Assembly (NCBI RefSeq): GCF_020149915.1
Contig: NZ_CP083760.1
Location: forward strand, 2,480,001 to 2,544,000
Reading direction: 5' to 3'
Source of the DNA: Candidatus Sulfidibacterium hydrothermale
Lineage (GTDB): Bacteria; Bacteroidota; Bacteroidia; Bacteroidales; F082
DNA: 64,000 nt
Shown: in pieces, positions 1 through 21,285 of the stretch
Numbering within the stretch: the stretch's first letter is position 1
How the letters are laid out: each line of letters opens with the position of its first letter
Notes under the pieces: generated by a model
Seen by the model: only the letters and a program-made list of their open reading frames with translations
Told to the model about the DNA's origin: nothing
The model's database searches: none
Made by a program: the position numbers and the translations under genes

Positions 1-1220
1 AAAGCCGTTTTCAAAGCAATAATCGGAATACCATAAGAGTCTTTTCCTTCAAAATCTTTTGTTTCAATGGCTTTTTTGATTTTAGCCCAGGAATAAACCC
101 ATGCATGGGAGTCGAGTTTACCGGCTACGATGATATAATCACCCGTCGGATCCACATCCACACCGTGCGGTGATTTCGGTTCAGGGATCAGGTAAAGCAA
201 ACCGTGTTTGATGGATTCGCTAATGGGGATTACCCGCATACCGTTCACCATCTTGGTTCTAATTTTTCCGGCTTTAATTAACTCTTCTGCTTTTTTCCAA
301 TTGGTCACATGCAAATAGTCCACATCACGTGAAGAACATCCGGCTTCAAACGGAGGACGTCCCTGCATATCGCCACCAATATACATTTCTGTACAAAATG
401 AGTTGGTAAATCCCCAGCCATAAGTAGCATTTTTACCGGCATCAGAAAGGTCTTGCGTATAAGGAGGCAACTCAAAAGTAAAGGATTTCTTTTCATCAAT
501 TCTTCCTTTTTTGTCATCAAAGGCCCAATAGGTAAGACCACCTCTCCAGTATTTCCGGAAGTTTACATCATTCAACGGATGATATTTATGATCGTAAGGA
601 GCCGGATACTGGGTAGCTTCCAAAATATACTCTGAATTCGGAGTAAAGAAAGCGCCACCGTGATCGCTTCTGAAGATCGGGTTAATCACCACTTGTTTTA
701 CTTCAAAATCCTTCAGATCAACGACATAAATCCGCGGATTGGCTTTATCATTAATTACGATCCATTTTCCGTCGTAATCGCCATTGGTTTCAGAAAAACC
801 CGGATGGTGGGTATCACCCCAAAGGATTTCTTCACCATCAATAAAGCCGGTTTTCATCAGATCATAAGTTTCAGCGGAATAGCCATAACCATCATAAGGC
901 TGACGGGTATTGGTCGGAGTATATTTTACCAAGCGCATGGAAGGCACCAAATAAGTTGGCATATTTCCTTCCTGTCCGCCTGAGTTAATAGCAACGTATT
1001 CATCTTTCAGATGATCGGGAGTGTACGTTTTGGCAGCAGCCAAAACATCATCGGCGGTAAGGCCTCTGCGGCTTACCACATCGCCAAATGATTCATTACC
1101 TCTGGGTGCTCCTACTTCTGTTGCTTTTTGTTTTTTACCGCCGCAACCGGTAAAAACCATACCAAAGCCAACGAGCAGAACAACCATAAAGAGGCTGGTA
1201 TATTGTTTGAATTTTTTCAT
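1..1220 (-). CDS. nosZ: Nitrous-oxide reductase NosZ, clade II, lipoprotein (C-terminal part beyond window)
   Basis: About 406 N-terminal residues are present; the gene runs off the left edge, so the CuA domain is not visible. NosZ reduces N2O to N2 outside the inner membrane. The start is the ATG ending at 1220. Residues 1-26 form a lipoprotein signal (VFTGC, Cys26), so this is a Sec-exported clade II-type enzyme without a twin-arginine leader. The seven-bladed propeller carries the expected CuZ histidine motifs: DTHHPGF (His138/139), SDHGG (His187), SPHGV (His352) and DSHAW (His372); the remaining ones lie beyond the edge. It begins 36 bp after the CuZ-less paralogue and has no promoter of its own that I can see, so the two are probably co-transcribed. 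Identity is clear; catalytic competence is inferred from the visible ligands only. Confidence 0.93.
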   Translation of the reverse strand, partial: MKKFKQYTSLFMVVLLVGFGMVFTGCGGKKQKATEVGAPRGNESFGDVVSRRGLTADDVLAAAKTYTPDHLKDEYVAINSGGQEGNMPTYLVPSMRLVKYTPTNTRQPYDGYGYSAETYDLMKTGFIDGEEILWGDTHHPGFSETNGDYDGKWIVINDKANPRIYVVDLKDFEVKQVVINPIFRSDHGGAFFTPNSEYILEATQYPAPYDHKYHPLNDVNFRKYWRGGLTYWAFDDKKGRIDEKKSFTFELPPYTQDLSDAGKNATYGWGFTNSFCTEMYIGGDMQGRPPFEAGCSSRDVDYLHVTNWKKAEELIKAGKIRTKMVNGMRVIPISESIKHGLLYLIPEPKSPHGVDVDPTGDYIIVAGKLDSHAWVYSWAKIKKAIETKDFEGKDSYGIPIIALKTA

Positions 1221-1256: not shown

Positions 1257-3509
1257 TTACTTAATGCCTTCCAGTTTTTCTTTCAACAGTTTTTTAGCAC
1301 GCAAACCGGCATCAGCAGCTTTCACCTGATATTGGAAATACTGCTCGGCCCACAGGAATGCCTGTTTCCATTTGCCTTCTTTAGCAAATTTTTCATAGTT
1401 CTGTTTCGGAACAGCTGCTTTGTTCAACTGAGCCACAGCATCCTGTACCAGTGCTTTTACATACGGATGGTTTTCATAATGGTTTTCTTTCAACCATTTC
1501 ACCACTCCATTGATTACATCCTGGGTTTGGGCAATCACTTTCAGTTTTTCTTCGTAATTTTTCTTATACCCGGCCAGCTCTTTTGCTGTCAGCTGAATTT
1601 CGCCGGAGCCACCTGTGGATTTGTAATTTTTCGGTTTCACCATCAAGATACCTTCCATTTCGAGGTGCAAGGCCGAACAGAATTCGGTACAATAGTACGG
1701 GAATGCACCTGCACGGTCGGCCACAAAGGTCAACGAAGCGGTTTTACCCGGTTCGAAGCTACCGTGTTTACCGTAGGTATCAATGGTAAATCCGTGGGTT
1801 TCGTCCTCTGCCAGCTCAAGGTTGGTCAGGTGGAACGTAACAATATCACCCTGATTTACTTCTACAATTTCAGGGGTAATGTGTGAACGGATAAGGGTTC
1901 CGAATACGTGAACACGGTTTCCTTTACGTTCAATTTTTTCTTTTCCGGCCACCGTTTTGAAAGGTGAAATTTCGCCGGTTCTGGAGTTGGTTCCGGTGGG
2001 ATACCGAATAATCGGTTTAATGGTAGTACGCAATACCGCCACCGAACCATACATATTACACTGCGGTAAGGTCATGGTGTATAAATCGTGCATTTTGTCA
2101 CCTGAAATATCAATCAGATGCTGGGCACTGGGACGAACCGGACCTACACTTTGCAGATTTTTATAAAGAACCTCTTTATCCACTGCCGTCAGGTAGTTGG
2201 AATGAGGGGTTTCTGACAGTCCCTGAGGCACCATTAAGTAGGAAGGATGGAAATCCAGGGTCAGTTCTCCGGTTTTTTTCAGGGTTTCATAGTTCCAGCG
2301 AACAATTTTTTTCGCATCATGCAACGAAGCATAAGCAATATCAGGACGATATTCGAAAGCCACGTCAATCACGGGGCCGCCGAAATCCATGGTGCCATGC
2401 AATACTTTTTTGGTATCGATTACCGGAATACCGCCATCGGCTTTTCCGGCATAAGTTTTATTCACCAAGGCATTTTTCACTTTGGCAAAATCAAACACAT
2501 TGGTTTGATCATCCACGGTAATGAAATATTTGCCTTTGGGAGTGATTTTTAAAATATTGGCTTTAGCCGGCAGTTCAATCAATGCAATGGCATTGGCTTT
2601 TAAGGCTTCATCAAGCGGAACCACAGCAAAGTTATTGACTTCTGTGGTTTTCATGCCAATTACTTTTTTGTAATCCACTACATAGGCATAATGTTTACTG
2701 CCTTTGTCAGCCAGTCCAACCAAAAGTCCGTCACCTACCATTTTACCCACATCAAAATAACCAAGGGTATAAGGAGGTAATTCCAGCGTAATGGATTTCT
2801 CCTTTAAAATACGGCCGGCATGACCCGTTTTGGTTGCTTTTTTTACATTGTGGAAATACCAGAAGGTAATTCCCGACTTCATTTTTTTGTCGTAATCTTT
2901 TTTCAGGTCGACCGTTCTCATGTTCCAGGTGGAGGGATACTGGCTGGTTTGAATAACCCAGTCGGTATTAGGGGTAACGGCCACTTCGGGATAACAGGAA
3001 ATAAAGAGCGGGTGGCTCAGCACCTGTTTGGTCTCAAAGTCTTCGAGGTCGAGCATGGCAATACGCGAATTAGCCCCGTCGGAATAGAACAGGTGTTTTC
3101 CATCATATTTTCCGTTGGTTTCGGAAAGTGCAGGAAAACGCATATCGCCGTACCAATCGATTTTATCGTCCAGCGAAGCTTTTTTCAGCAACAACGAACT
3201 TTCGTCGTCGTAACCATATCCCTGCCAGGGTTCGGGAGAAAATACACCCACGTATTTGTAAATACGCATTGAGGGGATTCCGTAAACGATCATGGTTCCG
3301 GAGTTACCGGTTCCCACAAACCCAAAATACTCGTCACGGCCTCCTCGCGGCATAAAGGTTTTGACCGCAGCCAGTACATCGGCATCGGACAAGCCACGTT
3401 CTTTTTTCACCTCGTTGAGCGTCTGCTGGGCTTTAACCGGAACTCCGGCTGATGCCATCAGCAGAAAGACAAGACTCAACACGAGAAAACGTCTTGAAAT
3501 TAACATCAT
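1257..3509 (-). CDS. NosZ-like protein with CuA site but no CuZ ligands
   Basis: A 750-residue NosZ homologue with a Sec signal peptide (residues 1-27, no lipobox), a propeller (about 30-500), a cupredoxin CuA domain (about 530-625) and a helical, lysine-rich C-terminal extension (about 640-750) without a CXXCH heme motif. CuA ligands are intact: His572 (THGF), Cys607, Cys611, His615 and Met618. Every CuZ motif is altered compared with the neighbouring NosZ: DTHHP is DMRFP (122-126), SDHGG is SCYPE (171-175), SPHGV is ANILK (317-321), DSHAW is DDQTN (333-337), the later GPLHT-type site is GPVID (378-382), and GPLHP is GPVRP (456-460). It therefore cannot build the N2O-reducing cluster as known. 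The propeller scaffold (SETNGKYDG, LIDISGDKM) is well kept, arguing for a selected role, perhaps electron transfer to or hetero-dimerisation with NosZ (inference). Two adjacent ATGs (3509, 3506) are possible starts. Confidence 0.9.
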   Translation of the reverse strand: MMLISRRFLVLSLVFLLMASAGVPVKAQQTLNEVKKERGLSDADVLAAVKTFMPRGGRDEYFGFVGTGNSGTMIVYGIPSMRIYKYVGVFSPEPWQGYGYDDESSLLLKKASLDDKIDWYGDMRFPALSETNGKYDGKHLFYSDGANSRIAMLDLEDFETKQVLSHPLFISCYPEVAVTPNTDWVIQTSQYPSTWNMRTVDLKKDYDKKMKSGITFWYFHNVKKATKTGHAGRILKEKSITLELPPYTLGYFDVGKMVGDGLLVGLADKGSKHYAYVVDYKKVIGMKTTEVNNFAVVPLDEALKANAIALIELPAKANILKITPKGKYFITVDDQTNVFDFAKVKNALVNKTYAGKADGGIPVIDTKKVLHGTMDFGGPVIDVAFEYRPDIAYASLHDAKKIVRWNYETLKKTGELTLDFHPSYLMVPQGLSETPHSNYLTAVDKEVLYKNLQSVGPVRPSAQHLIDISGDKMHDLYTMTLPQCNMYGSVAVLRTTIKPIIRYPTGTNSRTGEISPFKTVAGKEKIERKGNRVHVFGTLIRSHITPEIVEVNQGDIVTFHLTNLELAEDETHGFTIDTYGKHGSFEPGKTASLTFVADRAGAFPYYCTEFCSALHLEMEGILMVKPKNYKSTGGSGEIQLTAKELAGYKKNYEEKLKVIAQTQDVINGVVKWLKENHYENHPYVKALVQDAVAQLNKAAVPKQNYEKFAKEGKWKQAFLWAEQYFQYQVKAADAGLRAKKLLKEKLEGIK

Positions 3510-3972: not shown

Positions 3973-4830
3973 TTACAAAAGCAAAACAAAAGGCGGCCAA
4001 AATACCCACTCGCCCCACCACCGGTACCGGTTTTTCACCTGAAAGAACGAGGGGAAAAGCAACAAAACAGACAATAAAAGATTCATCACCAGCAAAAGAG
4101 AAAAATAGATTCTCCAATGCGGAAAAACAAACACCAGTCCGATCAGCAAAAAAATCAGAAAAACAAGCAGAACTGCAACAAACCGACGAGTAAAAAAATG
4201 TCCGTAAAAAGTGGTAAAACTTTTAAGATGATCTTGCTGGTCTTCGTTTTGTTCGTAAAATGACATCAGGACACTTTCACTCCAGGCCGTCAGCACATAA
4301 ATCACCAACAATATCCATTCCGGGGCCATTAAAGCCCGATGATGCCAGGTTACAGGAGCCAGTGCCGTACCTGCCACATAAAACAGGGCAATAAAAAACT
4401 CTTTGTGGAAATAAAAACCGCTTTTGCGTACCAACAACACCAAAAGCAGATAAACAGCGGCAAAAGTTCCCAGCCACATCCCATTCTCGAATACTGCTGC
4501 GCCAAGATAAATCCATGCGAGTACTGCAGCCAAAAGCGCAATGACAACAAGCGTCACAATAAAAAAACGCCGATACTGATAATGAAACCGGTGACGGTAA
4601 ATAACGGCTGCCTGTTTTCTGGTCATTCCGTCCACAAGATGGTCGGCCGTATAAACGGTCCAAACCGACAAAGCCAGCACCAACAGCCAAACTGGACGGA
4701 CGGGGACACCGAAGAGATGCGCCCAGAAGCAACCAGATGCCAGCGCCCCGCCAGTAACATCAAGGCTCAACACCTGAAACAACACCGGCACATTTTTTAA
4801 CCAAACACGTTTATTTTTGTTTCTATCCAT
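3973..4830 (-). CDS. UbiA-like polytopic membrane protein, function unknown
   Basis: 285 residues from the ATG at 4830 (an upstream TTG at 4842 lies inside the terminator hairpin and is unlikely). The protein has about seven to eight hydrophobic segments. Two acidic stretches sit where UbiA-superfamily prenyltransferases carry their Asp-rich motifs: VYTADHLVDG near residue 65, and NEDQQDHLKSF near 200 followed by a Thr/Gly-containing stretch. Both are weaker than canonical NDxxDxxxD. The assignment to the UbiA superfamily is therefore tentative; it could be a prenyl- or heme-modifying enzyme or a non-catalytic relative. It lies between the ACIII genes and the NosZ-type pair in the same orientation, but a terminator separates it from actF. 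Confidence 0.5.
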   Translation of the reverse strand: MDRNKNKRVWLKNVPVLFQVLSLDVTGGALASGCFWAHLFGVPVRPVWLLVLALSVWTVYTADHLVDGMTRKQAAVIYRHRFHYQYRRFFIVTLVVIALLAAVLAWIYLGAAVFENGMWLGTFAAVYLLLVLLVRKSGFYFHKEFFIALFYVAGTALAPVTWHHRALMAPEWILLVIYVLTAWSESVLMSFYEQNEDQQDHLKSFTTFYGHFFTRRFVAVLLVFLIFLLIGLVFVFPHWRIYFSLLLVMNLLLSVLLLFPSFFQVKNRYRWWGEWVFWPPFVLLL

Positions 4831-4840
4831 TACCAAAAGC

Positions 4841-4878
4841 AAAAAAGCCCCCGGAAAAGAACGGGAGCTTTTTTTTAA
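4841..4878 (-). terminator. Rho-independent terminator after actF
   Basis: Read on the minus strand, a GCTCCCG/CGGGGGC stem (one mismatch) with an 8-nt loop is followed by TTTTTT; A-runs on the other side make it potentially bidirectional. It lies 20 bp after the actF stop and marks the end of the act operon. Confidence 0.8.
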
Positions 4879-4897: not shown

Positions 4898-6076
4898 TTA
4901 ATATTCTTCTTCGTAATCTTCCAACGTAAAGCATTCCATCAAATAGGGATGATTTCTGGGGACTAACGGATGCTTGGCAAGCGACAAGGCCGTGATGAGT
5001 ATAAACAGGCCTGCAAAACCAATAAAAGTACCAATCTCCAGGTAGCCGAATACCACTTTATGCATGGTTTCAGCCACTACCGCGTTATAAATTTCAATGT
5101 ACTGTCCCACTACCAATACAGCGACCGTAATCAACAAAGCATTAGGATTTTTAGCCAACCGGTTCCACATGAGAAACAGAAACGGGAACAACCAGTTCAC
5201 CAGGATTTCTGCCAGGAACAATCCGTAAAATCCTTCCTGCCGGCGCATGTAATAATACACGGTTTCTTCCGGAATATTGCCATACCAAATCAGTAAATAC
5301 TGCATCAGCCACATATATCCCCACATGATACTCAGCATAAAAATGTATTTCGAGAAATCATGCAGATGCCCTTCGTTCAGAAACGGGAAGTAACCCAAAC
5401 GGTTTAAAATAATTACCACGGCAACAATGATGGCAGAGCCATGATAAAAAGCCGAAACAAAAAACTTCACCGAGAACAAGGTACTATACCAATGTGCATC
5501 CAGCGACATCAGCCAATCGATTCCCACGAAGATAAAAGAAACGCCCAACACAAAAATAAAGACCTTGGACAAAAATTCTATTTTATTGAAAGCATCCAGT
5601 CCTCCAACCACATCTTCGTGCAACGACAGTTTTCTTATCTGCAAAGCAATCCAAATCCACAGGATAAAAAACACCACAGTCCGGATAATGAAAAAGGGAA
5701 CATTCAGGTAAGGTGATTTATGTGCTAAAACCGGATCGTGCAAGGCTGCACCGGGTTCTGCCCAGTGAAACAAATGAGGCAGTCCAAAAAACAAAGGAAT
5801 CCACAATATAGCCGCAACAAGCAGGTAGGAAACCATGGATTGCGGAATCCGCAAAAATCCGGATGACCAACCTGACTGGGTAATGGCCTGCAAAGCCATC
5901 CAAAAAAGCGCTCCCAAAGCGATGGACAAAAACATAAAATTGTTGACCAGCAGATTAGTCCATGTTCTTGTCGTTGCACCCGTCAGGAAACCGGCAAAAA
6001 CAGTAACCACGCCAATTCCCACCATGAGAATCATGATTATTTTAAACGACTTACTAATTTGAAGTTTGTTATCCAT
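4898..6076 (-). CDS. actF: Alternative complex III subunit ActF
   Basis: 392 residues with about ten membrane helices and no soluble domain. ActF is an integral-membrane subunit of alternative complex III, the quinol:electron-acceptor oxidoreductase that replaces cytochrome bc1 in many Bacteroidota; it is related to the NrfD-like subunit ActC. It is the last gene of actABCDEF, 27 bp after actE, and is followed by a strong terminator. In many relatives cytochrome oxidase genes follow here; in this genome the next genes are a UbiA-like protein and two NosZ-type proteins. Identification rests on gene order plus sequence character. Confidence 0.88.
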   Translation of the reverse strand: MDNKLQISKSFKIIMILMVGIGVVTVFAGFLTGATTRTWTNLLVNNFMFLSIALGALFWMALQAITQSGWSSGFLRIPQSMVSYLLVAAILWIPLFFGLPHLFHWAEPGAALHDPVLAHKSPYLNVPFFIIRTVVFFILWIWIALQIRKLSLHEDVVGGLDAFNKIEFLSKVFIFVLGVSFIFVGIDWLMSLDAHWYSTLFSVKFFVSAFYHGSAIIVAVVIILNRLGYFPFLNEGHLHDFSKYIFMLSIMWGYMWLMQYLLIWYGNIPEETVYYYMRRQEGFYGLFLAEILVNWLFPFLFLMWNRLAKNPNALLITVAVLVVGQYIEIYNAVVAETMHKVVFGYLEIGTFIGFAGLFILITALSLAKHPLVPRNHPYLMECFTLEDYEEEY

Positions 6077-6103
6077 GAGAATCTATTTTTATACGCAGAG
6101 GCA

Positions 6104-6709
6104 TTATTTTTTAACAATCGAACGCAAATAATTCACGATTTTCCAACGATTTTCGGGGGTAACCTGCACCCCGTGCGGCCCCATCAAACCAGATATAGAA
6201 CCTTCTGTAATGATAAAGTAGATTGTACCATCAGGCATGTTTTGCACATAACTTCCCGTTAAGTCACGCGGCTTGGCCGGAAAAAGTTTGGCAGCATACA
6301 AATGGCCGTTTCCTTTAGCATCAAACCCATGACAATCAGCACAAAAGATATCATACTGCCGTTTTCCTTCTTTTAAATTTTCAGGAGTGGGCTGAATCGG
6401 ATTTTTCAGTTCCACACCGGCTTTTGCCTGATCGGCCACCTTTTCGGCAATATTTTTCGGATGATACGGGAAATAGGTACTGTTCCGGGCCACCGCACCG
6501 GCAGGAGCAGGCTGATTTACCTGGCCGTTGGGCAAAACGTTACTCGGCGCGTACGCTTTATCAAATTTGGTATAATACATATCGTATTTTCCCATGTAAG
6601 CATAACCCGGATCATTTTTATCGCTGACACAGGACGAAAGCATCCCGGCCAAAAGGAAAAGACCAAAAAATAGAATCGTTATCTTTTTCATTTTAAAAGT
6701 TTTTCGCAT
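6104..6709 (-). CDS. actE: Alternative complex III subunit ActE, monoheme cytochrome c lipoprotein
   Basis: 201 residues from the ATG at 6709, which overlaps the actD stop (TAATG) and suggests translational coupling; an in-frame ATG at 6691 is an alternative. A lipobox (LSSC, Cys27) anchors it in a membrane. One heme-binding motif, CADCH (123-127), lies in a class I cytochrome c fold (C-terminal MPDGTIYFIITEG and PENRWKIVNYL). ActE is the mobile-side monoheme subunit of ACIII and a candidate exit point for electrons. Confidence 0.9.
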   Translation of the reverse strand: MRKTFKMKKITILFFGLFLLAGMLSSCVSDKNDPGYAYMGKYDMYYTKFDKAYAPSNVLPNGQVNQPAPAGAVARNSTYFPYHPKNIAEKVADQAKAGVELKNPIQPTPENLKEGKRQYDIFCADCHGFDAKGNGHLYAAKLFPAKPRDLTGSYVQNMPDGTIYFIITEGSISGLMGPHGVQVTPENRWKIVNYLRSIVKK

Positions 6710-7230
6710 TATACATTGCTTACATTGACCTCCACGGCACCACTTTTTTTCAACAATTCATCGATTTGACGAACCGTGTTTTCATCCATATTTTCATCTT
6801 TTTCAATCACAATGACAAACTTATCATCCATGGAACGGGGATCGGGCATAGGGGCTTTTTTCCCCGGCCACATTTTTTCGCGAATCAAAAGCGTAGCCAA
6901 TGTGAAGATAACCCCGGAAAGGATGGTCAAAACAAACATCAAAATCACAAAAGAAAGTGAATTATGCGGTTTCCCGCCAAAAGTAAGCGGATAACTAATC
7001 ACCGATGACCAATACAGAAAAGCAAAGACCGAAGCCGTTCCGAGTGCACCGTAAACAAAAGTAGCATACGGAATCCGTGTTTTCAGTTTTAATAAATCCC
7101 AAACATGTTCCAACGGAAAAGGAGAATAGACATCTTTTACTTTCACTCCGTTGTCGAGCAGTTTTTTCACGGCATCGGTTACCACATCCGGGTCATCAAA
7201 AACGCCGAGTATTTGAGCTTGATTATTCAT
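6709..7230 (-). CDS. actD: Alternative complex III subunit ActD (DUF3341)
   Basis: 173 residues if translation starts at the ATG ending at 7230, which overlaps the actC stop by 8 bp; a start at 7254 deeper inside actC would add eight residues and is less likely. An N-terminal soluble region (ILGVFDDPDVVTDAVKKL) is followed by two membrane helices (about 60-85 and 95-120) and a short soluble tail. This matches the DUF3341/ActD subunit, structural in ACIII with no cofactor motif. Confidence 0.9.
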   Translation of the reverse strand: MNNQAQILGVFDDPDVVTDAVKKLLDNGVKVKDVYSPFPLEHVWDLLKLKTRIPYATFVYGALGTASVFAFLYWSSVISYPLTFGGKPHNSLSFVILMFVLTILSGVIFTLATLLIREKMWPGKKAPMPDPRSMDDKFVIVIEKDENMDENTVRQIDELLKKSGAVEVNVSNV

Positions 7231-8605
7231 GATTTTCCGAGTTTTCTGTAACAATACTGGTTTCTTTCAACACGCCTTTCAGTTCACTGATGGCCATCAT
7301 AGGCAAGAAGCGCAAGAACAGCAGGATACCGAGAATAAAAAATCCCATGGTACCTACATAAATAGCCACTTCTGTTACTGTGGGATGATAACCATGCCAG
7401 GTAGCCGGCAACCAGGTCTTTGACAATGAGGTGACCACAATCACAAAACGTTCGTACCACATCCCGATATTAATGAAGATACTGATAATGAAAACCATTG
7501 TAATATTTTTTCTAACCTTTTTAAACCAGAAAAGCTGAGGAACAATGGCATTAAAAGTAATCATGGCCCAGTATTCAAAAGCATATTCGCCCACCGTACG
7601 GTTTTTGAAAAAGACAAACATTTCGTAAGGCGAGTCGGAATACCAGGCAATAAAAATTTCTGAAATATAAGCTACTCCCATGATGAGAGAAACAAAAGTC
7701 AGCACACGGGCAATTGCATCCAAATGTCGTTGGGTAACGTACTCTTCGTATTTATATACTTTCCGGACAATGATCATCATGGTCAGCACCATGGCAAATC
7801 CGGAAAAGATGGCGCCCACCACAAAAAACGGGGGGAAAATGGTAGAATGCCATCCGGGAACCACACCGGCTGCAAAGTCGGTGGCCACAATAGAGTGAAC
7901 CGAAACAACCAGCGGAGCTGTTAATCCGCCCATCAAAAGGGCTGCCGATTCAAAACGCAACCAACCACGGGCCGATCCCAGCCAGCCAAAACTCAATACG
8001 TTGTAAATGGCTTTTTTAACTTTAGAAGTGGTTCTTTCGCGAATAGTCGCAAAATCGGGCATCATCCCCACATACCAAAACAGGAATGAAGCCGTCAGAT
8101 AAGTACTAATCGCCACCACATCCCAAAACAGAGGAGAGTTGAAGTTATCCCACAACGGGCCACGGGTATTGGGATAAGGGAAAATAAAAAATCCGTCCCA
8201 GATTCGTCCCATGTGGATCAACGGGAACATTCCGGCAGCCATCACTGCAAAAATGGTCATGGCTTCGGCTGCCCGGTTAATGGAGGTTCTCCATTTTTGA
8301 TGCAGTACCAGCAAAAAGATGGAAAAGGCCGTTCCGGCATGTCCAATACCAATCCACCAAACAAAGTTAATGATCGCCCATCCCCATGAAACGCTGTTAT
8401 TTAATCCCCAGGTTCCAATTCCATTGGCAATGGTGTTGTAAAAGCCCCAAACACCCCAGGCCAGCATGGCACTGGAGATAAAGGCAGCAGCCCACCACCA
8501 GGCCGGCGTTGTCTTACTCAGCAAAGGATTGGTAATATCACGCGTAATATCGTGGTATCGCTTATTTCCTTCAATTAATACGCCTCTGACTTTAATATTA
8601 TACAT
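7223..8605 (-). CDS. actC: Alternative complex III subunit ActC (NrfD/PsrC-like)
   Basis: 460 residues, about ten membrane helices, NrfD/PsrC family. In ACIII this subunit carries the quinol-oxidising site facing the iron-sulfur subunit ActB. Recognisable stretches include the Trp-rich SWGWAIINFVWWIGIGHAG near residue 75 and GMFPLIHMGR near 125. It starts 15 bp after actB and overlaps actD at its end, consistent with a single transcript. Confidence 0.92.
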   Translation of the reverse strand: MYNIKVRGVLIEGNKRYHDITRDITNPLLSKTTPAWWWAAAFISSAMLAWGVWGFYNTIANGIGTWGLNNSVSWGWAIINFVWWIGIGHAGTAFSIFLLVLHQKWRTSINRAAEAMTIFAVMAAGMFPLIHMGRIWDGFFIFPYPNTRGPLWDNFNSPLFWDVVAISTYLTASFLFWYVGMMPDFATIRERTTSKVKKAIYNVLSFGWLGSARGWLRFESAALLMGGLTAPLVVSVHSIVATDFAAGVVPGWHSTIFPPFFVVGAIFSGFAMVLTMMIIVRKVYKYEEYVTQRHLDAIARVLTFVSLIMGVAYISEIFIAWYSDSPYEMFVFFKNRTVGEYAFEYWAMITFNAIVPQLFWFKKVRKNITMVFIISIFINIGMWYERFVIVVTSLSKTWLPATWHGYHPTVTEVAIYVGTMGFFILGILLFLRFLPMMAISELKGVLKETSIVTENSENHE

Positions 8606-8620
8606 AATACCCGTTTTTTA

Positions 8621-11566
8621 TTATGCTTCTTTATTTCTTACTTTAGTTAAATAGCTTGTGGAAGGCAGCGTATGCAACGATTCGAGCAGATGATACATCC
8701 GGCCGGTATCGTTGGACTGACTGACAGCACTTTTCTTGTCCAGCAGATTTCCAAACTGAATGGCATCGGTAGGACAACTTTGCTGACAGGCCGTTAAAAT
8801 TTCACCGTCACGTAATTCACGATCTTCGGCTTTGGCTTCCAGTTTTTTCTCCTGGATACGTTGTACACAGAACGTACATTTTTCCACTACCCCACGCTGA
8901 CGAACGGTTACATCCGGATTTAATACCAGTTTGCCCAGTTCGCTGTTCATGTTATAATCAAAACTGTTGTTGTTCACGTATTCGTACCAGTTGAAACGCC
9001 GCACTTTATACGGACAGTTGTTCATACAATAGCGGGTTCCGATACAGCGGTTATAGGCCATTTGGTTCAATCCTTCATCGCTGTGTGTGGTAGCCGCCAC
9101 CGGACATACATTTTCGCACGGTGCATTGTCACACTGCTGGCACATCACCGGCATGTGGAACACTTCCGGATCATCAGCCATTTCGGAATAATAGCGGTCA
9201 ATCCGGATCCAGTGCATAATCCGTCCCAGTTTTACCTGTTCTTTTCCTACCACCGCCACATTGTTTTCTGCCTGACAGGAGATCAAACAGTTACTACAAC
9301 CGGTACAGCTATTCAGATCGATGGAAAGTCCCCACTGGAAAGCATCAAATTTCGGTTCAGGATAAAGGCTGAAATTTTCACTCTTCAGGAATTTCTCATG
9401 CTCTTCATTACCTGCTGCCGGATTCTTAATAAACTCTCCGAGCACCGTTTCACGTACAATAGGACGGCCTTCCATCACATGATGGGTCTGGGTAAGTGCC
9501 AACGGATAAGTTTTGGAGGTCTTGGTCAACGTAACAGATGTTCCCAACAATTTTTTTGTTCCGCCATCTGTATTCAACAGATGAAAAACATTTTTTCCGA
9601 TGCCATCACCGACTTTTCCCGCATGGGTTCGTCCATATCCTACCGCAATACCAATGGTTCCTTCGGTTTGCCCCGGCTGAATCAACACAGGAAGTTCTAT
9701 CTTTCCGTTGATTTTCACCACATCTTCCTGTTTCAACCCCTGGGCATCGGCATAAGCCGGTGAAACCGTAACATAATTATCCCACGTGGCTGTGGAAACC
9801 GGATCGGGCATCTCCTGCAGCCAGGGATTATTGGCATGTTTACCGGTTCCCATGGCAATTTTTTCATACAATGCCAGTTCCAGGCCTTTTGCCGCCGGGC
9901 GGGAAACTTTTAACCGGGCCGGTTTAAAAGCCGGCTGGGCTGTTTCTGTTTCTGCAAGATAAAAAACGCCGTCCTGTTTACATTTAAACCAAAACTTGTC
10001 GAAACTTGAATATTCTTTTTGTTTGGGATAATAGGTTGTTTTCCAATTATTTTCCAAATAATCGGAGAAGCTCTGTTTGGCACCCATCCAGGTTAACAGG
10101 CTCTCCTGAAATTGCCGCGTATCAAAAATAGGCCGGATAGCGGGCTGGGTAAAGCTGTAAAATCCGGCGGCCGGCTCTGCATCGTTCCACGACTCCAGGT
10201 AATTATTATCCGGACAAACATAATCGCACAATGCAGCTGTTTCGTCCATTGTGGAAGCAAATGAAACTTTTAACGGTAACTTTTTCACCGCTTTGGCCAA
10301 ATCCGGAGCATGAACACAATCATAAGCCGGATTAACATTGTAAAAGAGAATGCCACCGGCTTTACCCGACTGCATTTCCTTCAATGCCGCTTTCATCTCT
10401 TTTTCCTGTCCCTGTTTCAGATAAACCGGCGTATTCAGGTCAATGGTTTTTCCATAATTATCTAAAAGAGCATTGATAGCATTGACAATCAACTGAATTT
10501 GCAAGTCGTTGGTTCCTGAAACCACCAGCGATTTTCCTTTAGACCGAAGCAGGTCCGCAGCCACACGCTTTACATCTGTTTTCACCGACGGGGCCGGATA
10601 CAACGTATTACCTGTTTTCTTAGCTAATGTATTGTACAGTTTAAGCAAGACAGCCGCCTCTTCGGAAGGCTTAATCTGATACCGGTAATCGGCATTGGAA
10701 CCGGTGAGTGACATATTGGTTTCGAATTGGTACAAACGCGACATTTTCGTTTGTCCGTCTTTAATTTTACGTCCTTTGGCAAACTGCTTGGAGAAAGTCA
10801 CCGGCATCAGCCAGGTTCCCAGAAAATCGGCATTAAAGCCCACCATGACGTCAGCATTTTCGAAATGGTAATAAGGAATGACCGCTTTCCCAAAATTGGT
10901 TTGGTTGGCCTGACGCATCGCCGACAGGGGCAAAGTATCGTATTGTACCCATTTTACATGGGGATAAGCCTGAATAAAATCACCGATCAGCTTACGGGTA
11001 GTCGGACTAATAATCGTAGAAGTAAGAAGAATTACCGATTTTCCTTCGGTTTTCAGCGTGTTAAGCTGCGCCTGAATTTCTTTATCTATGGTTTTCCAGT
11101 CGGTTTGTTTTCCGTTTTTTACCGGGCCTTTCAACCGGGCATCATCGTAGAGGTCAAGCACAGAAGCCTGTACGCGGGCTGTGGTTCCCCGTTGCGAAAT
11201 GGGTGAAAGCTCATTTCCTTCAATTTTAATCGGGCGACTCTCGCGGGTTTTCACGAGAATGCTGCAATATTCATCACCATCAAAAAAAGTGGAAGCATAA
11301 TAATTAGGGACACCGGGAGTAAGCTCCTGCGGCCGGTTTAACAAAGGAATTGCTTTCCGGACAGGCATTTGACAGCTGGAGACCAGCGCCACTGCTCCCA
11401 CCGAAAAACCCATCATTTTCAAGAAATCACGACGGCTCGATTTTCCTTTCACTTCAGATTCTTCCAAACCTTCGATGGAAAATTCGGGCATGGCTTCTTT
11501 TTCTGAAACACGGTTTTTTTTCAGTTCCTTGTAATTTTCCAGACTTTGCCAGTATTTCTTCTCCAT
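8621..11566 (-). CDS. actB: Alternative complex III subunit ActB (molybdopterin-like plus iron-sulfur)
   Basis: 981 residues. A twin-arginine motif (SRRDFLK, 44-50) precedes a hydrophobic stretch. The large central part (about 70-700) resembles the molybdopterin oxidoreductase fold, which in known ACIII complexes binds no molybdenum. The C-terminal 230 residues are a four-cluster ferredoxin module: CTGCSNCLISC from about 754, CQQCDNAPCENVC near 809, CIGTRYCMNNC near 841 and CTFC/CQQSC near 897-931. ActB carries electrons from the quinol site of ActC to the hemes of ActA. It is a natural fusion of two Psr-type subunits, as is usual in this complex. Confidence 0.94.
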   Translation of the reverse strand: MEKKYWQSLENYKELKKNRVSEKEAMPEFSIEGLEESEVKGKSSRRDFLKMMGFSVGAVALVSSCQMPVRKAIPLLNRPQELTPGVPNYYASTFFDGDEYCSILVKTRESRPIKIEGNELSPISQRGTTARVQASVLDLYDDARLKGPVKNGKQTDWKTIDKEIQAQLNTLKTEGKSVILLTSTIISPTTRKLIGDFIQAYPHVKWVQYDTLPLSAMRQANQTNFGKAVIPYYHFENADVMVGFNADFLGTWLMPVTFSKQFAKGRKIKDGQTKMSRLYQFETNMSLTGSNADYRYQIKPSEEAAVLLKLYNTLAKKTGNTLYPAPSVKTDVKRVAADLLRSKGKSLVVSGTNDLQIQLIVNAINALLDNYGKTIDLNTPVYLKQGQEKEMKAALKEMQSGKAGGILFYNVNPAYDCVHAPDLAKAVKKLPLKVSFASTMDETAALCDYVCPDNNYLESWNDAEPAAGFYSFTQPAIRPIFDTRQFQESLLTWMGAKQSFSDYLENNWKTTYYPKQKEYSSFDKFWFKCKQDGVFYLAETETAQPAFKPARLKVSRPAAKGLELALYEKIAMGTGKHANNPWLQEMPDPVSTATWDNYVTVSPAYADAQGLKQEDVVKINGKIELPVLIQPGQTEGTIGIAVGYGRTHAGKVGDGIGKNVFHLLNTDGGTKKLLGTSVTLTKTSKTYPLALTQTHHVMEGRPIVRETVLGEFIKNPAAGNEEHEKFLKSENFSLYPEPKFDAFQWGLSIDLNSCTGCSNCLISCQAENNVAVVGKEQVKLGRIMHWIRIDRYYSEMADDPEVFHMPVMCQQCDNAPCENVCPVAATTHSDEGLNQMAYNRCIGTRYCMNNCPYKVRRFNWYEYVNNNSFDYNMNSELGKLVLNPDVTVRQRGVVEKCTFCVQRIQEKKLEAKAEDRELRDGEILTACQQSCPTDAIQFGNLLDKKSAVSQSNDTGRMYHLLESLHTLPSTSYLTKVRNKEA

Positions 11567-11603
11567 AATATATTGAAATGGAATTAGTTAAAAATTCAAA
11601 TGA

Positions 11604-12815
11604 TTAATAGTGACATTTTGCACAATCTTCTCCGCCAATCATCTTCACAGTGACCAAATCTATTTTGCCGGCCCGGAGTTCTTCGTGCAATTTTTTATAA
11701 GCACCATAAAATTTGTTGTTGGTAAATTGCACTTTATGCGTCCGGTGACAATCAAGACACCATCCCATACTTAAATCTTTCACCTGGGCAATCTGATCCA
11801 TTTGATCCACATTGCCGTGGCATTCGGTACAATCCAGTTTTCCCACCTTTACATGCTGTTCGTGGTTGAAATAAACAAAATCAGGCAGGTTATGTACTTT
11901 CACCCACTGGATGGGCTTGTTCTCTTTGATTGCAGCATAAATCTTGGCAATTTCTTTAGTACCGGTATGTTTACCCGATTTTACCTGCGAATGGCAATTC
12001 ATACAAACCGATGCAGGTGGAATACCGGCATGCTGGCTTCTTTCCACTGTAAAGTGACAATATTCACAGTCAATTTTATTTTGTCCGACATGTACTTTAT
12101 GCGAAAACCAGATGGGCTGATCAGGCTGGTAAAATTCTTGTCGTCCCAAACTGGTGGCATAATCCCAAGACCATTGTCCCATAATCCACAACGTAACCAG
12201 CATAAGCACATAATGTACCCATTTGGCTTTCAGGTAATGGGTAAAAATGAGGTCAATCAGCACCAAAAGAAAAACCACCAAAGAAACAAGGGCAAGAATA
12301 GCCAACATCCGGCTTTTTTCGCGCTTTTGCTGAATGTAACGTTCGGCTTCACTCATTGTAGAAACCGGTGCCGTTGTTTTTTTTACTGTCGTTTTTTGAG
12401 CCGTTTTCTGGGAAGATTTTGCCGCTACTTTTCCGCCATTTTTAATATAAAGCAAAATGTCTTTTACCTGGGCATCTGTTAATTGATGCGATGGCATGGG
12501 AATTTTACTGTATTCATTAAAAATCTTCACGGCCCGTTTGTCTCCCGCCTTGACCATAGCCTGGGAATTCTGGATGAATTTGATCAGCCATTCCTGCGGA
12601 TATTTATCCGTAACCCCTTTCAGATCAGGGCCGACAAGTCTACCGCCTCCAATGGTATGACAGGCTTTACACTGTGCAAAATTTTTCTCTGCCTCAGCAG
12701 TTTGTCCCGATACGGACGAATAAGTAGTGAAGAAAAAGACAAAAAATAACAATAGGAAACCGGTGAGACGAACAATTTTCAATCTCCTGACATGCACAAA
12801 TCTGTTCATTATCAT
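11604..12815 (-). CDS. actA: Alternative complex III subunit ActA, fused hexaheme cytochrome
   Basis: 403 residues with six CXXCH motifs. After a signal/anchor segment there is a class I monoheme cytochrome c domain (CKACH, 49-53; Met-containing IPMPSHQ near 106), a Lys/Thr-rich linker (about 125-155), two hydrophobic segments (about 169-192 and 199-214), and a pentaheme domain with CEYCH (250), CMNCH (271), CTECH (329), CLDCH (353) and CAKCH (398). The pentaheme part is the standard ActA; the N-terminal monoheme domain is an addition that may pass electrons to soluble acceptors. It is the first gene of the operon, with a good promoter about 95 bp upstream. The start is the ATG at 12815 or 12809. 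Confidence 0.92.
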   Translation of the reverse strand: MIMNRFVHVRRLKIVRLTGFLLLFFVFFFTTYSSVSGQTAEAEKNFAQCKACHTIGGGRLVGPDLKGVTDKYPQEWLIKFIQNSQAMVKAGDKRAVKIFNEYSKIPMPSHQLTDAQVKDILLYIKNGGKVAAKSSQKTAQKTTVKKTTAPVSTMSEAERYIQQKREKSRMLAILALVSLVVFLLVLIDLIFTHYLKAKWVHYVLMLVTLWIMGQWSWDYATSLGRQEFYQPDQPIWFSHKVHVGQNKIDCEYCHFTVERSQHAGIPPASVCMNCHSQVKSGKHTGTKEIAKIYAAIKENKPIQWVKVHNLPDFVYFNHEQHVKVGKLDCTECHGNVDQMDQIAQVKDLSMGWCLDCHRTHKVQFTNNKFYGAYKKLHEELRAGKIDLVTVKMIGGEDCAKCHY

Positions 12816-21159: not shown

Positions 21160-21285
21160 GTTTGAATTATACAGAGGAGCGGAGAGAACAGGCTCTGTGA
21201 AACTCCGGCAACCTGCCCGTCTCAGGCGGGAAAGGTGCCAATACCTGCCGTTTCGGGCAATACCGGACGGAATTATAATTTAAAC
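21160..21285 (+). promoter_or_regulatory. SAM riboswitch (S-box, SAM-I type)
   Basis: The conserved S-box core is legible: AGAGGAGCGGAGAGA, then the CTCTGTGAAACTCCGGCAAC segment, then AAAGGTGCCAATACCTGC. The outer P1 helix pairs GTTTGAATTATA (21160-21171) with TATAATTTAAAC (21274-21285), twelve pairs including one G-U. It precedes genes for aspartate kinase, MetY, MetX and homoserine dehydrogenase, so high SAM should lower methionine synthesis. No ordinary U-tract terminator directly follows the aptamer; the next structure is the inverted repeat at 21374-21478. Confidence 0.88.

What the first reader, a model, noticed from the sequence alone, without database searches (positions are those of the whole stretch)
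1257..3509. NosZ paralogue that lost all visible CuZ ligand motifs but kept CuA
Seen directly: the neighbour NosZ has DTHHP, SDHGG, SPHGV and DSHAW; this protein has DMRFP, SCYPE, ANILK and DDQTN at those places, plus GPVID and GPVRP where GPLHT and GPLHP are expected. CuA residues (His572, Cys607, Cys611, His615, Met618) and the propeller scaffold are kept. In known NosZ the CuA of one subunit faces the CuZ of the other, so a CuA-only subunit could pair with the true NosZ as a hetero-dimer or act as a dedicated electron shuttle. I know of no described family like this.
Basis: partly seen in the sequence, partly recalled or inferred. Interest (0 to 1): 0.93.

Follow-up and report, generated by a model that had tools for sequence, protein, structure and literature searches.

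The report
Split N2O reductase of two half-subunits
Two adjacent genes in many uncultured Bacteroidota each encode a nitrous oxide reductase subunit that has lost one of the enzyme's two copper sites and kept the other, so a working enzyme for destroying this greenhouse gas can probably form only when the two different halves pair up.

Summary
The 750-aa protein (here A, window 1257-3509, minus) keeps every CuA side-chain ligand and none of the seven CuZ histidines. Its neighbour is not a normal NosZ. Read past the window edge, this 799-aa protein (Z) keeps all seven CuZ histidines, has lost every CuA ligand and carries a fused cytochrome c. The loss is reciprocal across the family: 60 of 60 distinct A proteins keep CuA and none keeps more than one CuZ histidine; 62 of 62 Z proteins lack CuA, and 61 keep all seven CuZ histidines (the other has masked bases). 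The parts that couple the sites across the canonical dimer interface are divided the same way. All 36 A genomes found in three genome searches also carry Z, usually adjacent, at the head of a nos operon. Both genes are under purifying selection. Best reading: an obligate A:Z heterodimeric N2O reductase with one active site per dimer, the CuA of A feeding the CuZ of Z. Origin by one duplication is plausible but only 'not rejected'. Heterodimer formation and activity are inferred, not shown. Ten library searches found no description.

The parts
1257..3509 (-). A: CuA-only NosZ paralogue, 750 aa, Sec-type N-terminus (by eye), degenerate propeller, intact CuA cupredoxin domain, helical C-terminal extension
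2010..3350 (-). A: seven-bladed propeller region (about residues 54-500) without CuZ ligands
   Evidence: coordinates computed from residue numbers
3135..3140 (-). A: R124-F125 at the place of the CuZ His-His pair
2991..2993 (-). A: Y173 at the place of the third CuZ His
2556..2558 (-). A: N318 at the place of the fourth CuZ His
2364..2366 (-). A: D382 at the place of the fifth CuZ His (Asp in 60 of 60 A proteins)
2238..2240 (-). A: Y424 at the place of the sixth CuZ His
2049..2051 (-). A: Y487 at the place of the seventh CuZ His (Tyr in 60 of 60)
2055..2057 (-). A: N485 at the place of the Glu (M. nauticus E488) of the CuA-CuZ conduit
1626..1952 (-). A: CuA cupredoxin domain (about residues 520-628)
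1794..1796 (-). A: CuA ligand H572
1656..1691 (-). A: CuA loop C607-E609-F610-C611-H615-M618
1260..1604 (-). A: C-terminal helical extension, shared with canonical NosZ of the L125-L131 type (39-46% identity over 115-116 columns); poorly alignable with Z (20% over 87 columns)
1..1220 (-). Z: N-terminal part of the CuZ-only NosZ-cytochrome c, probable ATG at 1220 (ORF caller's TTG at 1229). The gene continues outside the window (L003:14830-17229 minus; window position 1 = L003 position 16001)
804..809 (-). Z: CuZ ligands H141-H142
660..662 (-). Z: CuZ ligand H190
165..167 (-). Z: CuZ ligand H355 (H422, H464 and H526 lie outside the window)

Best explanation
A and Z are the two subunits of a split, obligately heterodimeric nitrous oxide reductase. 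A clade II nosZ was probably duplicated in tandem; the upstream copy lost its CuZ half-site and the downstream copy lost its CuA half-site and gained a C-terminal cytochrome c. In the canonical head-to-tail homodimer the cupredoxin domain of one subunit packs on the propeller of the other, and each CuA-CuZ pair lies across that interface. In an A:Z dimer the cupredoxin of A (CuA plus the gating Phe) would face the propeller of Z (CuZ plus the Glu/Lys of the conduit and the calcium clamp), giving one active site, while the opposite face is dead. Electrons would go from periplasmic cytochrome c, including the heme fused to Z, to CuA of A and then to CuZ of Z, where N2O is reduced. SHOWN here: reciprocal ligand loss, reciprocal loss of coupling elements, co-occurrence, operon, purifying selection, NosZ folds for both monomer models. 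INFERRED: duplication as the origin, copper binding, heterodimer formation, electron path, N2O reduction.
For: Ligands: A, 5 of 5 CuA side-chain ligands in 60 of 60 and 0-1 of 7 CuZ His (0 in 48, 1 in 12); Z, 0 of 5 CuA ligands in 62 of 62 and 7 of 7 CuZ His in 61 (the other has masked bases); canonical, both sites in 30 of 30. Conduit (residues from PMC11573801): the Phe on the CuA side is F in 60 of 60 A and in 1 of 62 Z; the Glu on the CuZ side is E in 62 of 62 Z and N in 60 of 60 A; the Lys is kept in all. Calcium loop that clamps a propeller to the partner's cupredoxin: Glu and Asp kept in 62 of 62 Z; the stretch with the Glu deleted in 60 of 60 A. Of positions invariant in canonical NosZ and Z, 39 are replaced in A, all in the propeller; of those invariant in canonical and A, 24 are replaced in Z, 16 in the cupredoxin domain. 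Mean pairwise identity over 50 pairs: A propeller 0.64, cupredoxin 0.90; Z propeller 0.76, cupredoxin 0.67. Co-occurrence 36 of 36 genomes; Z directly after A on the same strand in 71 of 73 A loci, the other two at contig ends. dN/dS 0.04-0.09 in A. A and Z each one clade; sister relation not rejected. nosD, napG- and napH-like proteins, an ABC ATPase and ABC-2 permease in the nosF/nosY places and a weak NosL match downstream. Monomer models match NosZ best.
Against: No complex was modelled or measured; only monomers could be predicted. The maximum-likelihood tree places Z just outside a group of canonical NosZ plus A, not as sister of A, although the sister arrangement is only 0.56 log-likelihood units worse. 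Z carries its own heme, so CuA might be dispensable. Eight propeller positions invariant in canonical NosZ and kept in A are lost in Z, which the simple model does not predict. One of 62 Z keeps the conduit Phe. No cultured organism with the pair was identified, so there is no physiological evidence. dS values are near saturation.
Confidence: 0.8

Rival explanations
1. A is a separate CuA electron carrier: A and Z each form homodimers (or monomers), and A docks only transiently on Z to reduce CuZ, like a dedicated soluble cupredoxin.
For: No A has a lipobox-like motif in its first 60 residues (0 of 60), whereas 50 of 62 Z have one, so A may be soluble and Z anchored. A retains the full NosZ scaffold and the C-terminal extension of the L125-L131 type.
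Against: A keeps a whole propeller under purifying selection (propeller dN/dS about 0.05-0.12), which a shuttle does not need. Z keeps the calcium loop that in canonical NosZ grips the partner's cupredoxin domain.
Confidence: 0.12
2. Z is the whole enzyme: the fused heme c replaced CuA as direct electron donor to CuZ, and A is an accessory, assembly or regulatory protein.
For: All 62 distinct Z carry 1 or 2 CxxCH motifs and none of the 30 canonical rows does. In 10 of 43 loci Z has two heme motifs and no separate small cytochrome gene follows it.
Against: CuA in A is conserved at all five side-chain ligands in 60 of 60 and its cupredoxin is the slowest evolving domain of the pair. A and Z were not found without each other in the genomes examined. 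The conduit Phe next to CuA is kept in A.
Confidence: 0.04
3. A has a new function at its repacked propeller hub (for instance binding another ligand), with CuA serving that reaction.
For: Several replacements are fixed in A: D382, Y487 and N485 in 60 of 60, R124 in 58 of 60, with K445 kept in 60 of 60.
Against: Other former ligand places vary freely in A (N/K/S/T/H and more at 318; Y/Q/H/F/E and more at 424), which does not look like a new metal or substrate site. Fixed residues may just fill the cavity.
Confidence: 0.03
4. A is a decaying duplicate (pseudogene) or an assembly artefact.
For: A few copies are broken: one carries a frame break (L118, the G161 contig) and two matches run through a stop near the end.
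Against: Long open frames in 60 distinct sequences from many independent assemblies, dN/dS far below 1.
Confidence: 0.01

Closest known systems
Canonical clade II (Sec-dependent) NosZ, nearest examples Magnetovibrio blakemorei MV-1 and Sulfuricella-type (L125-L131)
   Same: Same fold and order of domains; similar operon (nosZ, then the 262-aa-type membrane protein and nosD in 7 of 7, napG/H-, nosF- and nosL-like genes in 6 of 7; cytochrome c genes between nosZ and the membrane protein in the two loci looked at); A shares their C-terminal helical extension
   Different: One protein bears both CuA and CuZ; here the sites are on two proteins and the downstream one is fused to cytochrome c
Clade I (Tat-dependent) NosZ of solved structures (PDB 5i5m, 3sbp, 9f8x)
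   Same: Best structural matches for both monomers
   Different: Homodimer with two identical active sites; 22-27% identity in the structural alignments
Cytochrome c-fused NosZ of Wolinella succinogenes type (recalled, not fetched)
   Same: C-terminal cytochrome c on a NosZ chain
   Different: From recall that enzyme keeps CuA; Z does not
Lactonase-type clade III NosZ (NCBIfam NF052460; seen as a model and in one passage)
   Same: Another recently named NosZ group
   Different: Z scores 105.6 and A 92.5 against a cut-off of 700
Engineered P. stutzeri NosZ single-residue variants (PDB 6y6y-6y7e, 7apy-7aqa; titles)
   Same: Loss of single CuZ or CuA ligands
   Different: Laboratory mutants of one homodimer; here nature removed whole half-sites reciprocally

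Membership tests
Nitrous oxide reductase (NosZ), fold | N-terminal propeller plus C-terminal cupredoxin domain | tested here: met
   A and Z models best match solved NosZ (A best E 1.8e-45, TM by target 0.80; Z best E 2.5e-48, TM by target 0.87)
Nitrous oxide reductase (NosZ), protein A | Seven CuZ histidines | tested here: not met
   0 of 7 in the window protein; 0-1 of 7 in 60 of 60 A
Nitrous oxide reductase (NosZ), protein A | CuA ligands His, 2 Cys, His, Met | tested here: met
   5 of 5 in 60 of 60
Nitrous oxide reductase (NosZ), protein Z | Seven CuZ histidines | tested here: met
   7 of 7 in 61 of 62; one row has masked bases
Nitrous oxide reductase (NosZ), protein Z | CuA ligands | tested here: not met
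   0 of 5 in 62 of 62
Nitrous oxide reductase (NosZ), A and Z together | Both copper sites and the F/E/K conduit available across an interface | tested here: met
   Present as the sum of A and Z by sequence; assembly itself not testable here
Sec-dependent NosZ, NCBIfam TIGR04246 | Score over 625 bits | tested here: inconclusive
   Window Z 678.4 and L107 Z 662 (pass), window A 434 and L107 A 391.3 (fail), L131 903.4 and L127 914.8 (pass). The model does not notice that Z lacks CuA
Clade III lactonase-type NosZ, NF052460 | Score over 700 bits | tested here: not met
   A 92.5, Z 105.6
Nitrous oxide reductase (NosZ) | Reduces N2O; binds CuA and CuZ | not testable with these tools
   needs protein work
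Nitrous oxide reductase (NosZ) | nos maturation genes in the cluster | tested here: met
   nosD over cut-off (359.8 vs 300); ABC ATPase and ABC-2 permease over Pfam cut-offs in the nosF and nosY places; NosL only weakly (21.0 bits vs 24, below cut-off); nosD homologue downstream in 42 of 43 loci with room

The most novel reading that the evidence does not exclude
A natural split nitrous oxide reductase: an obligate heterodimer of two reciprocally degenerate NosZ paralogues with exactly one CuA-CuZ active site per dimer, widespread in uncultured Bacteroidota and relatives and easily overlooked because the CuZ half passes the standard NosZ annotation model.
Probability: 0.78. Interest if true: 0.93.

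Novelty: new variant of a known kind. Interest (0 to 1): 0.9.

Why it matters
NosZ is the only well-established biological N2O sink, and every solved NosZ matched here is a canonical enzyme or a laboratory variant of one. A pair in which each partner has lost the opposite half-site is a natural test of the long-held structural inference that electrons pass from the CuA of one subunit to the CuZ of the other: an A:Z dimer has only that route. It also gives an enzyme in which each copper site can be loaded, removed and studied alone on its own chain, useful for the open question of how CuZ and CuA are assembled. For ecology, the CuZ half passes the standard NosZ annotation model while the CuA half does not, so nosZ gene surveys would count half an enzyme as a whole one and overlook the other.

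Tried and rejected
Considered and rejected: shifted histidines; pseudogene; a complete NosZ next door; a second canonical NosZ in the same genome (the propeller family finds only A and Z in the window's genome; none was seen in the 36 A genomes, but one search scored only two candidates per genome, so a further copy could be missed there).

Led nowhere: the search of 244 genomes of another class with the A protein of L097 found nothing at E <= 1e-120, with no positive control among them; plasmids hold no close A, 144 records all under 60% identity; the phylum-wide sample, weighted to near-complete genomes, had A only in the window's genome while 128 of 394 others had NosZ-like matches, of which 20 were fetched and all 20 show a CuA motif. 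A test of A+Z as one clade neither supports nor rejects it (p-AU 0.50). Inter-protein coevolution and interface mapping were not tried: too few pairs and no coordinates in the box. A correlation of A and Z distances (Mantel r 0.88 over 50 pairs, largest of 1000 permutations 0.14) is as expected from shared species history and operon linkage, so it is not used as evidence of contact.

Rows dropped before counts: one search used ORFs of 600 aa or more (84 A, 67 Z, 10 canonical), with near-copies and the same genomes under two collections; one search set minimum lengths (690 aa for A and Z, 600 for canonical) and removed near-copies, leaving 60 A, 62 Z and 29 canonical (30 with 5i5m). The tree used 26 A, 26 Z (every second of 50 pairs, plus the window) and 30 canonical. 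The genome-contig scan kept the best 80 of 449 relatives, so more A loci may exist. dN/dS compares the window with 10 relatives for A and 9 for Z only; dS could not be computed for 1 A and 3 Z comparisons. The downstream-gene counts use the 43 named loci with 4.5 kb or more after Z.
Full report
WHAT IS THERE. The window is G000:C1:2480001-2544000 of a 3.27-Mb single-contig genome, and it starts inside a nos operon on the minus strand. The finding's ORF (here A; 1257-3509 minus, 750 aa) is real. Against NCBIfam it matches the Sec-dependent NosZ model (residues 48-626 to profile 1-578) but at 434 bits, below the cut-off of 625. The gene after it is cut by the window edge. From the genome (L003) it is 799 aa (here Z; L003:14830-17229 minus). 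The gap from the A stop to the probable Z ATG at 1220 is 36 nt.

RECIPROCAL LOSS. I aligned 60 distinct A, 62 distinct Z and 29 canonical NosZ with the sequence of PDB 5i5m as printed, and read the ligand columns. Ligand identities agree with PMC11573801 (passages, and section 12). Canonical: 7 of 7 CuZ His and 5 of 5 CuA side-chain ligands in 30 of 30. A: 5 of 5 CuA ligands in 60 of 60; CuZ His 0 of 7 in 48 and 1 of 7 in 12 (never more). Z: 0 of 5 CuA ligands in 62 of 62; 7 of 7 CuZ His in 61, and 4 of 7 in one whose missing stretch is masked bases. The window's A has R124, F125, Y173, N318, D382, Y424 and Y487 in place of the histidines, and H572, C607, C611, H615, M618 for CuA.

THE COUPLING PARTS ARE SPLIT TOO. 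PMC11573801 describes a head-to-tail homodimer in which F617, E488 and K450 form the conduit between CuA of one protomer and CuZ of the other, and a calcium-bound loop (ligands include E260, D274) that clamps the propeller of one protomer to the cupredoxin domain of the other. The Phe sits in the CuA loop; Glu and Lys sit in the propeller. In A the triple K/E/F reads K,N,F in 60 of 60; in canonical K,E,F in 30 of 30; in Z it reads K,E and then Q 25, I 17, Y 9, V 8, M 2 and F 1. The calcium Glu and Asp are kept in 62 of 62 Z and 30 of 30 canonical, and the stretch with the Glu is deleted in 60 of 60 A. Of positions at least 95% invariant in canonical and Z, 39 are changed in A, all of them in the propeller; of positions invariant in canonical and A, 24 are changed in Z, 16 of them in the cupredoxin domain and 8 in the first part of the propeller.

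DOMAIN CONSTRAINT. Over 50 loci with both proteins, mean pairwise identity is 0.64 (A propeller), 0.90 (A cupredoxin), 0.76 (Z propeller), 0.67 (Z cupredoxin). Against the canonical L125-L131 the values are 0.39 and 0.72 for A, and 0.58 and 0.32 for Z. Each protein conserves the half that bears its remaining copper site. dN/dS between the window and its relatives is 0.044-0.093 for A (9 of 10 comparisons computable) and 0.030-0.088 for Z (6 of 9); dS is 1.3 or more throughout, so these are rough. The A propeller is also under purifying selection (0.05-0.12).

DISTRIBUTION. In the genus 7 of 12 genomes match A and 5 do not. In the family, which includes these, 27 of 173 have A by my count of the rows (41 have any match; the rest are canonical NosZ or weak CuA-domain matches). 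In a sample of the order 9 further genomes have A (25 of 393 matched, including the window's). All 36 of these also have Z, in a few cases on another contig or as a fragment at a contig end. I saw no genome with only one, nor one with A plus a canonical NosZ, within the limits of those searches (two candidates scored per genome). One 256-aa fragment (G028) fits neither clearly. In the named collection, the best 80 of 449 relatives comprise 73 A loci and 7 canonical NosZ; Z follows directly on the same strand in 71 of 73, and the other two end at contig ends. Record titles of the A loci include Bacteroidales, Flavobacteriales, Saprospiraceae, 'Chlorobiota', Melioribacteraceae and one Cloacimonetes MAG. 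The two collections overlap, so the 36 genomes and 73 loci are not independent. In a phylum-wide sample of 395 mostly near-complete genomes only the window's genome had A: the system seems absent or rare in well-sequenced Bacteroidota.

ORIGIN. In a maximum-likelihood tree of 82 rows A is one clade and Z is one clade (support 100 each), both among clade II NosZ near the Magnetovibrio/Sulfuricella type and far from the NosZ of about 664 aa found in some other genomes of the same family. The tree puts Z just outside canonical plus A; holding A and Z together costs 0.56 log-likelihood units, p-AU 0.50, so one duplication is compatible but not proved. A keeps the C-terminal helical extension of the L125-L131 type (39-46% identity over 115-116 columns). 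In those seven canonical loci nosZ is followed by the membrane protein and nosD in 7 of 7, and by napG-, napH-, nosF- and nosL-like genes in 6 of 7; L126 ends too early, L128 shows no nosY in its stretch, and in L130 the order of two of the matching ORFs differs. Between nosZ and the membrane protein lie two cytochrome c genes in both loci that I looked at, L125 and L131. The split loci keep this layout with A and Z at the place of nosZ: 43 of 43 loci with at least 4.5 kb downstream have the membrane protein and 42 of 43 nosD.

ELECTRON SUPPLY. All 62 Z carry one (50) or two (12) CxxCH motifs; no A or canonical protein in the set does. A small ORF with CxxCH follows Z in 20 of 33 loci whose Z has one heme motif and in 0 of 10 whose Z has two; the window genome's small cytochrome matches the Z ORF in all ten of the latter. 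A gene that stands alone in some genomes and is fused to Z in others is good evidence that it serves Z. Lipobox-like motifs occur in 50 of 62 Z and 0 of 60 A, so Z may be membrane-anchored and A soluble; this is a pattern match only.

OPERON IN THE WINDOW'S GENOME. After Z come a cytochrome c, the 262-aa protein without a family match, NosD (359.8 bits, cut-off 300), NapG- and NapH-like ferredoxin proteins (one NapH over its cut-off, 251.6 vs 213.05), an ABC ATPase, a NosL-like protein (21.0 bits, just below the Pfam cut-off of 24) and an ABC-2 permease.

STRUCTURE. AlphaFold2 monomer models: A pLDDT 85.4, pTM 0.79; Z 84.1, 0.76. The 50 listed Foldseek hits of each are all NosZ structures by title (lists capped), so the degenerate half-sites sit on retained NosZ folds. 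No complex could be modelled here.

HOW IT MOST LIKELY WORKS. Shown: two paralogues, each with one intact and one destroyed half-site, found together, both constrained, in one operon with nos maturation genes. Inferred: since in known NosZ the functional CuA-CuZ pair is inter-subunit, the combination A cupredoxin on Z propeller restores every element of one active site that I could check, while A:A, Z:Z and the other face of A:Z cannot. Hence an obligate heterodimer with one site per dimer (confidence 0.8). The main rival is a transient CuA carrier (0.12).

KNOWN OR NEW. NCBIfam calls Z a Sec-dependent NosZ (678.4 bits, over the cut-off) and leaves A below it, so the split is easily missed in routine annotation. 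Ten library searches gave no paper that by its listing describes such a pair; two searches listed only 20 of 55 and 20 of 218 papers. Passages seen in PMC11148229, PMC5219744, PMC13122619 and PMC6530538 do not describe it either. The library lacks most subscription papers and holds no bioRxiv preprints, so a description elsewhere cannot be excluded. I file each chain as a NosZ paralogue and neither as a complete NosZ, because a defining feature was tested and not met in each; together they are proposed to work like one.

Noticed in passing
Z of the family; NCBIfam TIGR04246: The curated 'Sec-dependent nitrous-oxide reductase' model accepts Z (2 of 2 tested) although it lacks CuA, so nosZ surveys would count half-enzymes as whole.
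   Followed up: yes
L074, L078, L090, L093, L100, L106, L108, L110, L120, L122: The small cytochrome c that elsewhere follows Z is fused onto it, giving two CxxCH motifs.
   Followed up: yes
Z residues aligned to A G56, G77, V89, F90, F141, A151, F158, T160: Eight propeller positions invariant in canonical NosZ and kept in A are lost in Z; unexplained, perhaps contacts within one chain to a cupredoxin domain that no longer matters in Z.
   Followed up: no
L003:4360-10820 minus: In the window's genome the nos cluster is interrupted by a TonB receptor, a 350-aa protein without a Pfam or NCBIfam match, a 2-hydroxyglutaryl-CoA dehydratase D-component protein and a BadF/BcrA-type ATPase; a NapH-like protein lies among them.
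   Followed up: partly
L003:13347-14135 minus: A 262-aa membrane-like protein with no Pfam or NCBIfam match lies upstream of nosD in 43 of 43 split loci with room (nosD itself found in 42) and in 7 of 7 canonical loci checked.
   Followed up: partly
window 4898-12815: Gene set upstream of the nos operon resembling alternative complex III (name recalled) or menaquinone reductase Qrc: multiheme cytochrome, Fe-S/molybdopterin-like fusion and NrfD-like subunits, all below the Qrc/Dsr cut-offs.
   Followed up: partly
window 3973-4842: Membrane protein with a weak UbiA match below the gathering score.
   Followed up: no
window 21164-21281: SAM riboswitch (Rfam RF00162, 76.7 bits).
   Followed up: no
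G007 contigs C170 and C151; L089 and L104: Two A-Z pairs in one genome bin (G007) and two A loci in one Lutibacter MAG, either true duplicates or strain mixtures.
   Followed up: no
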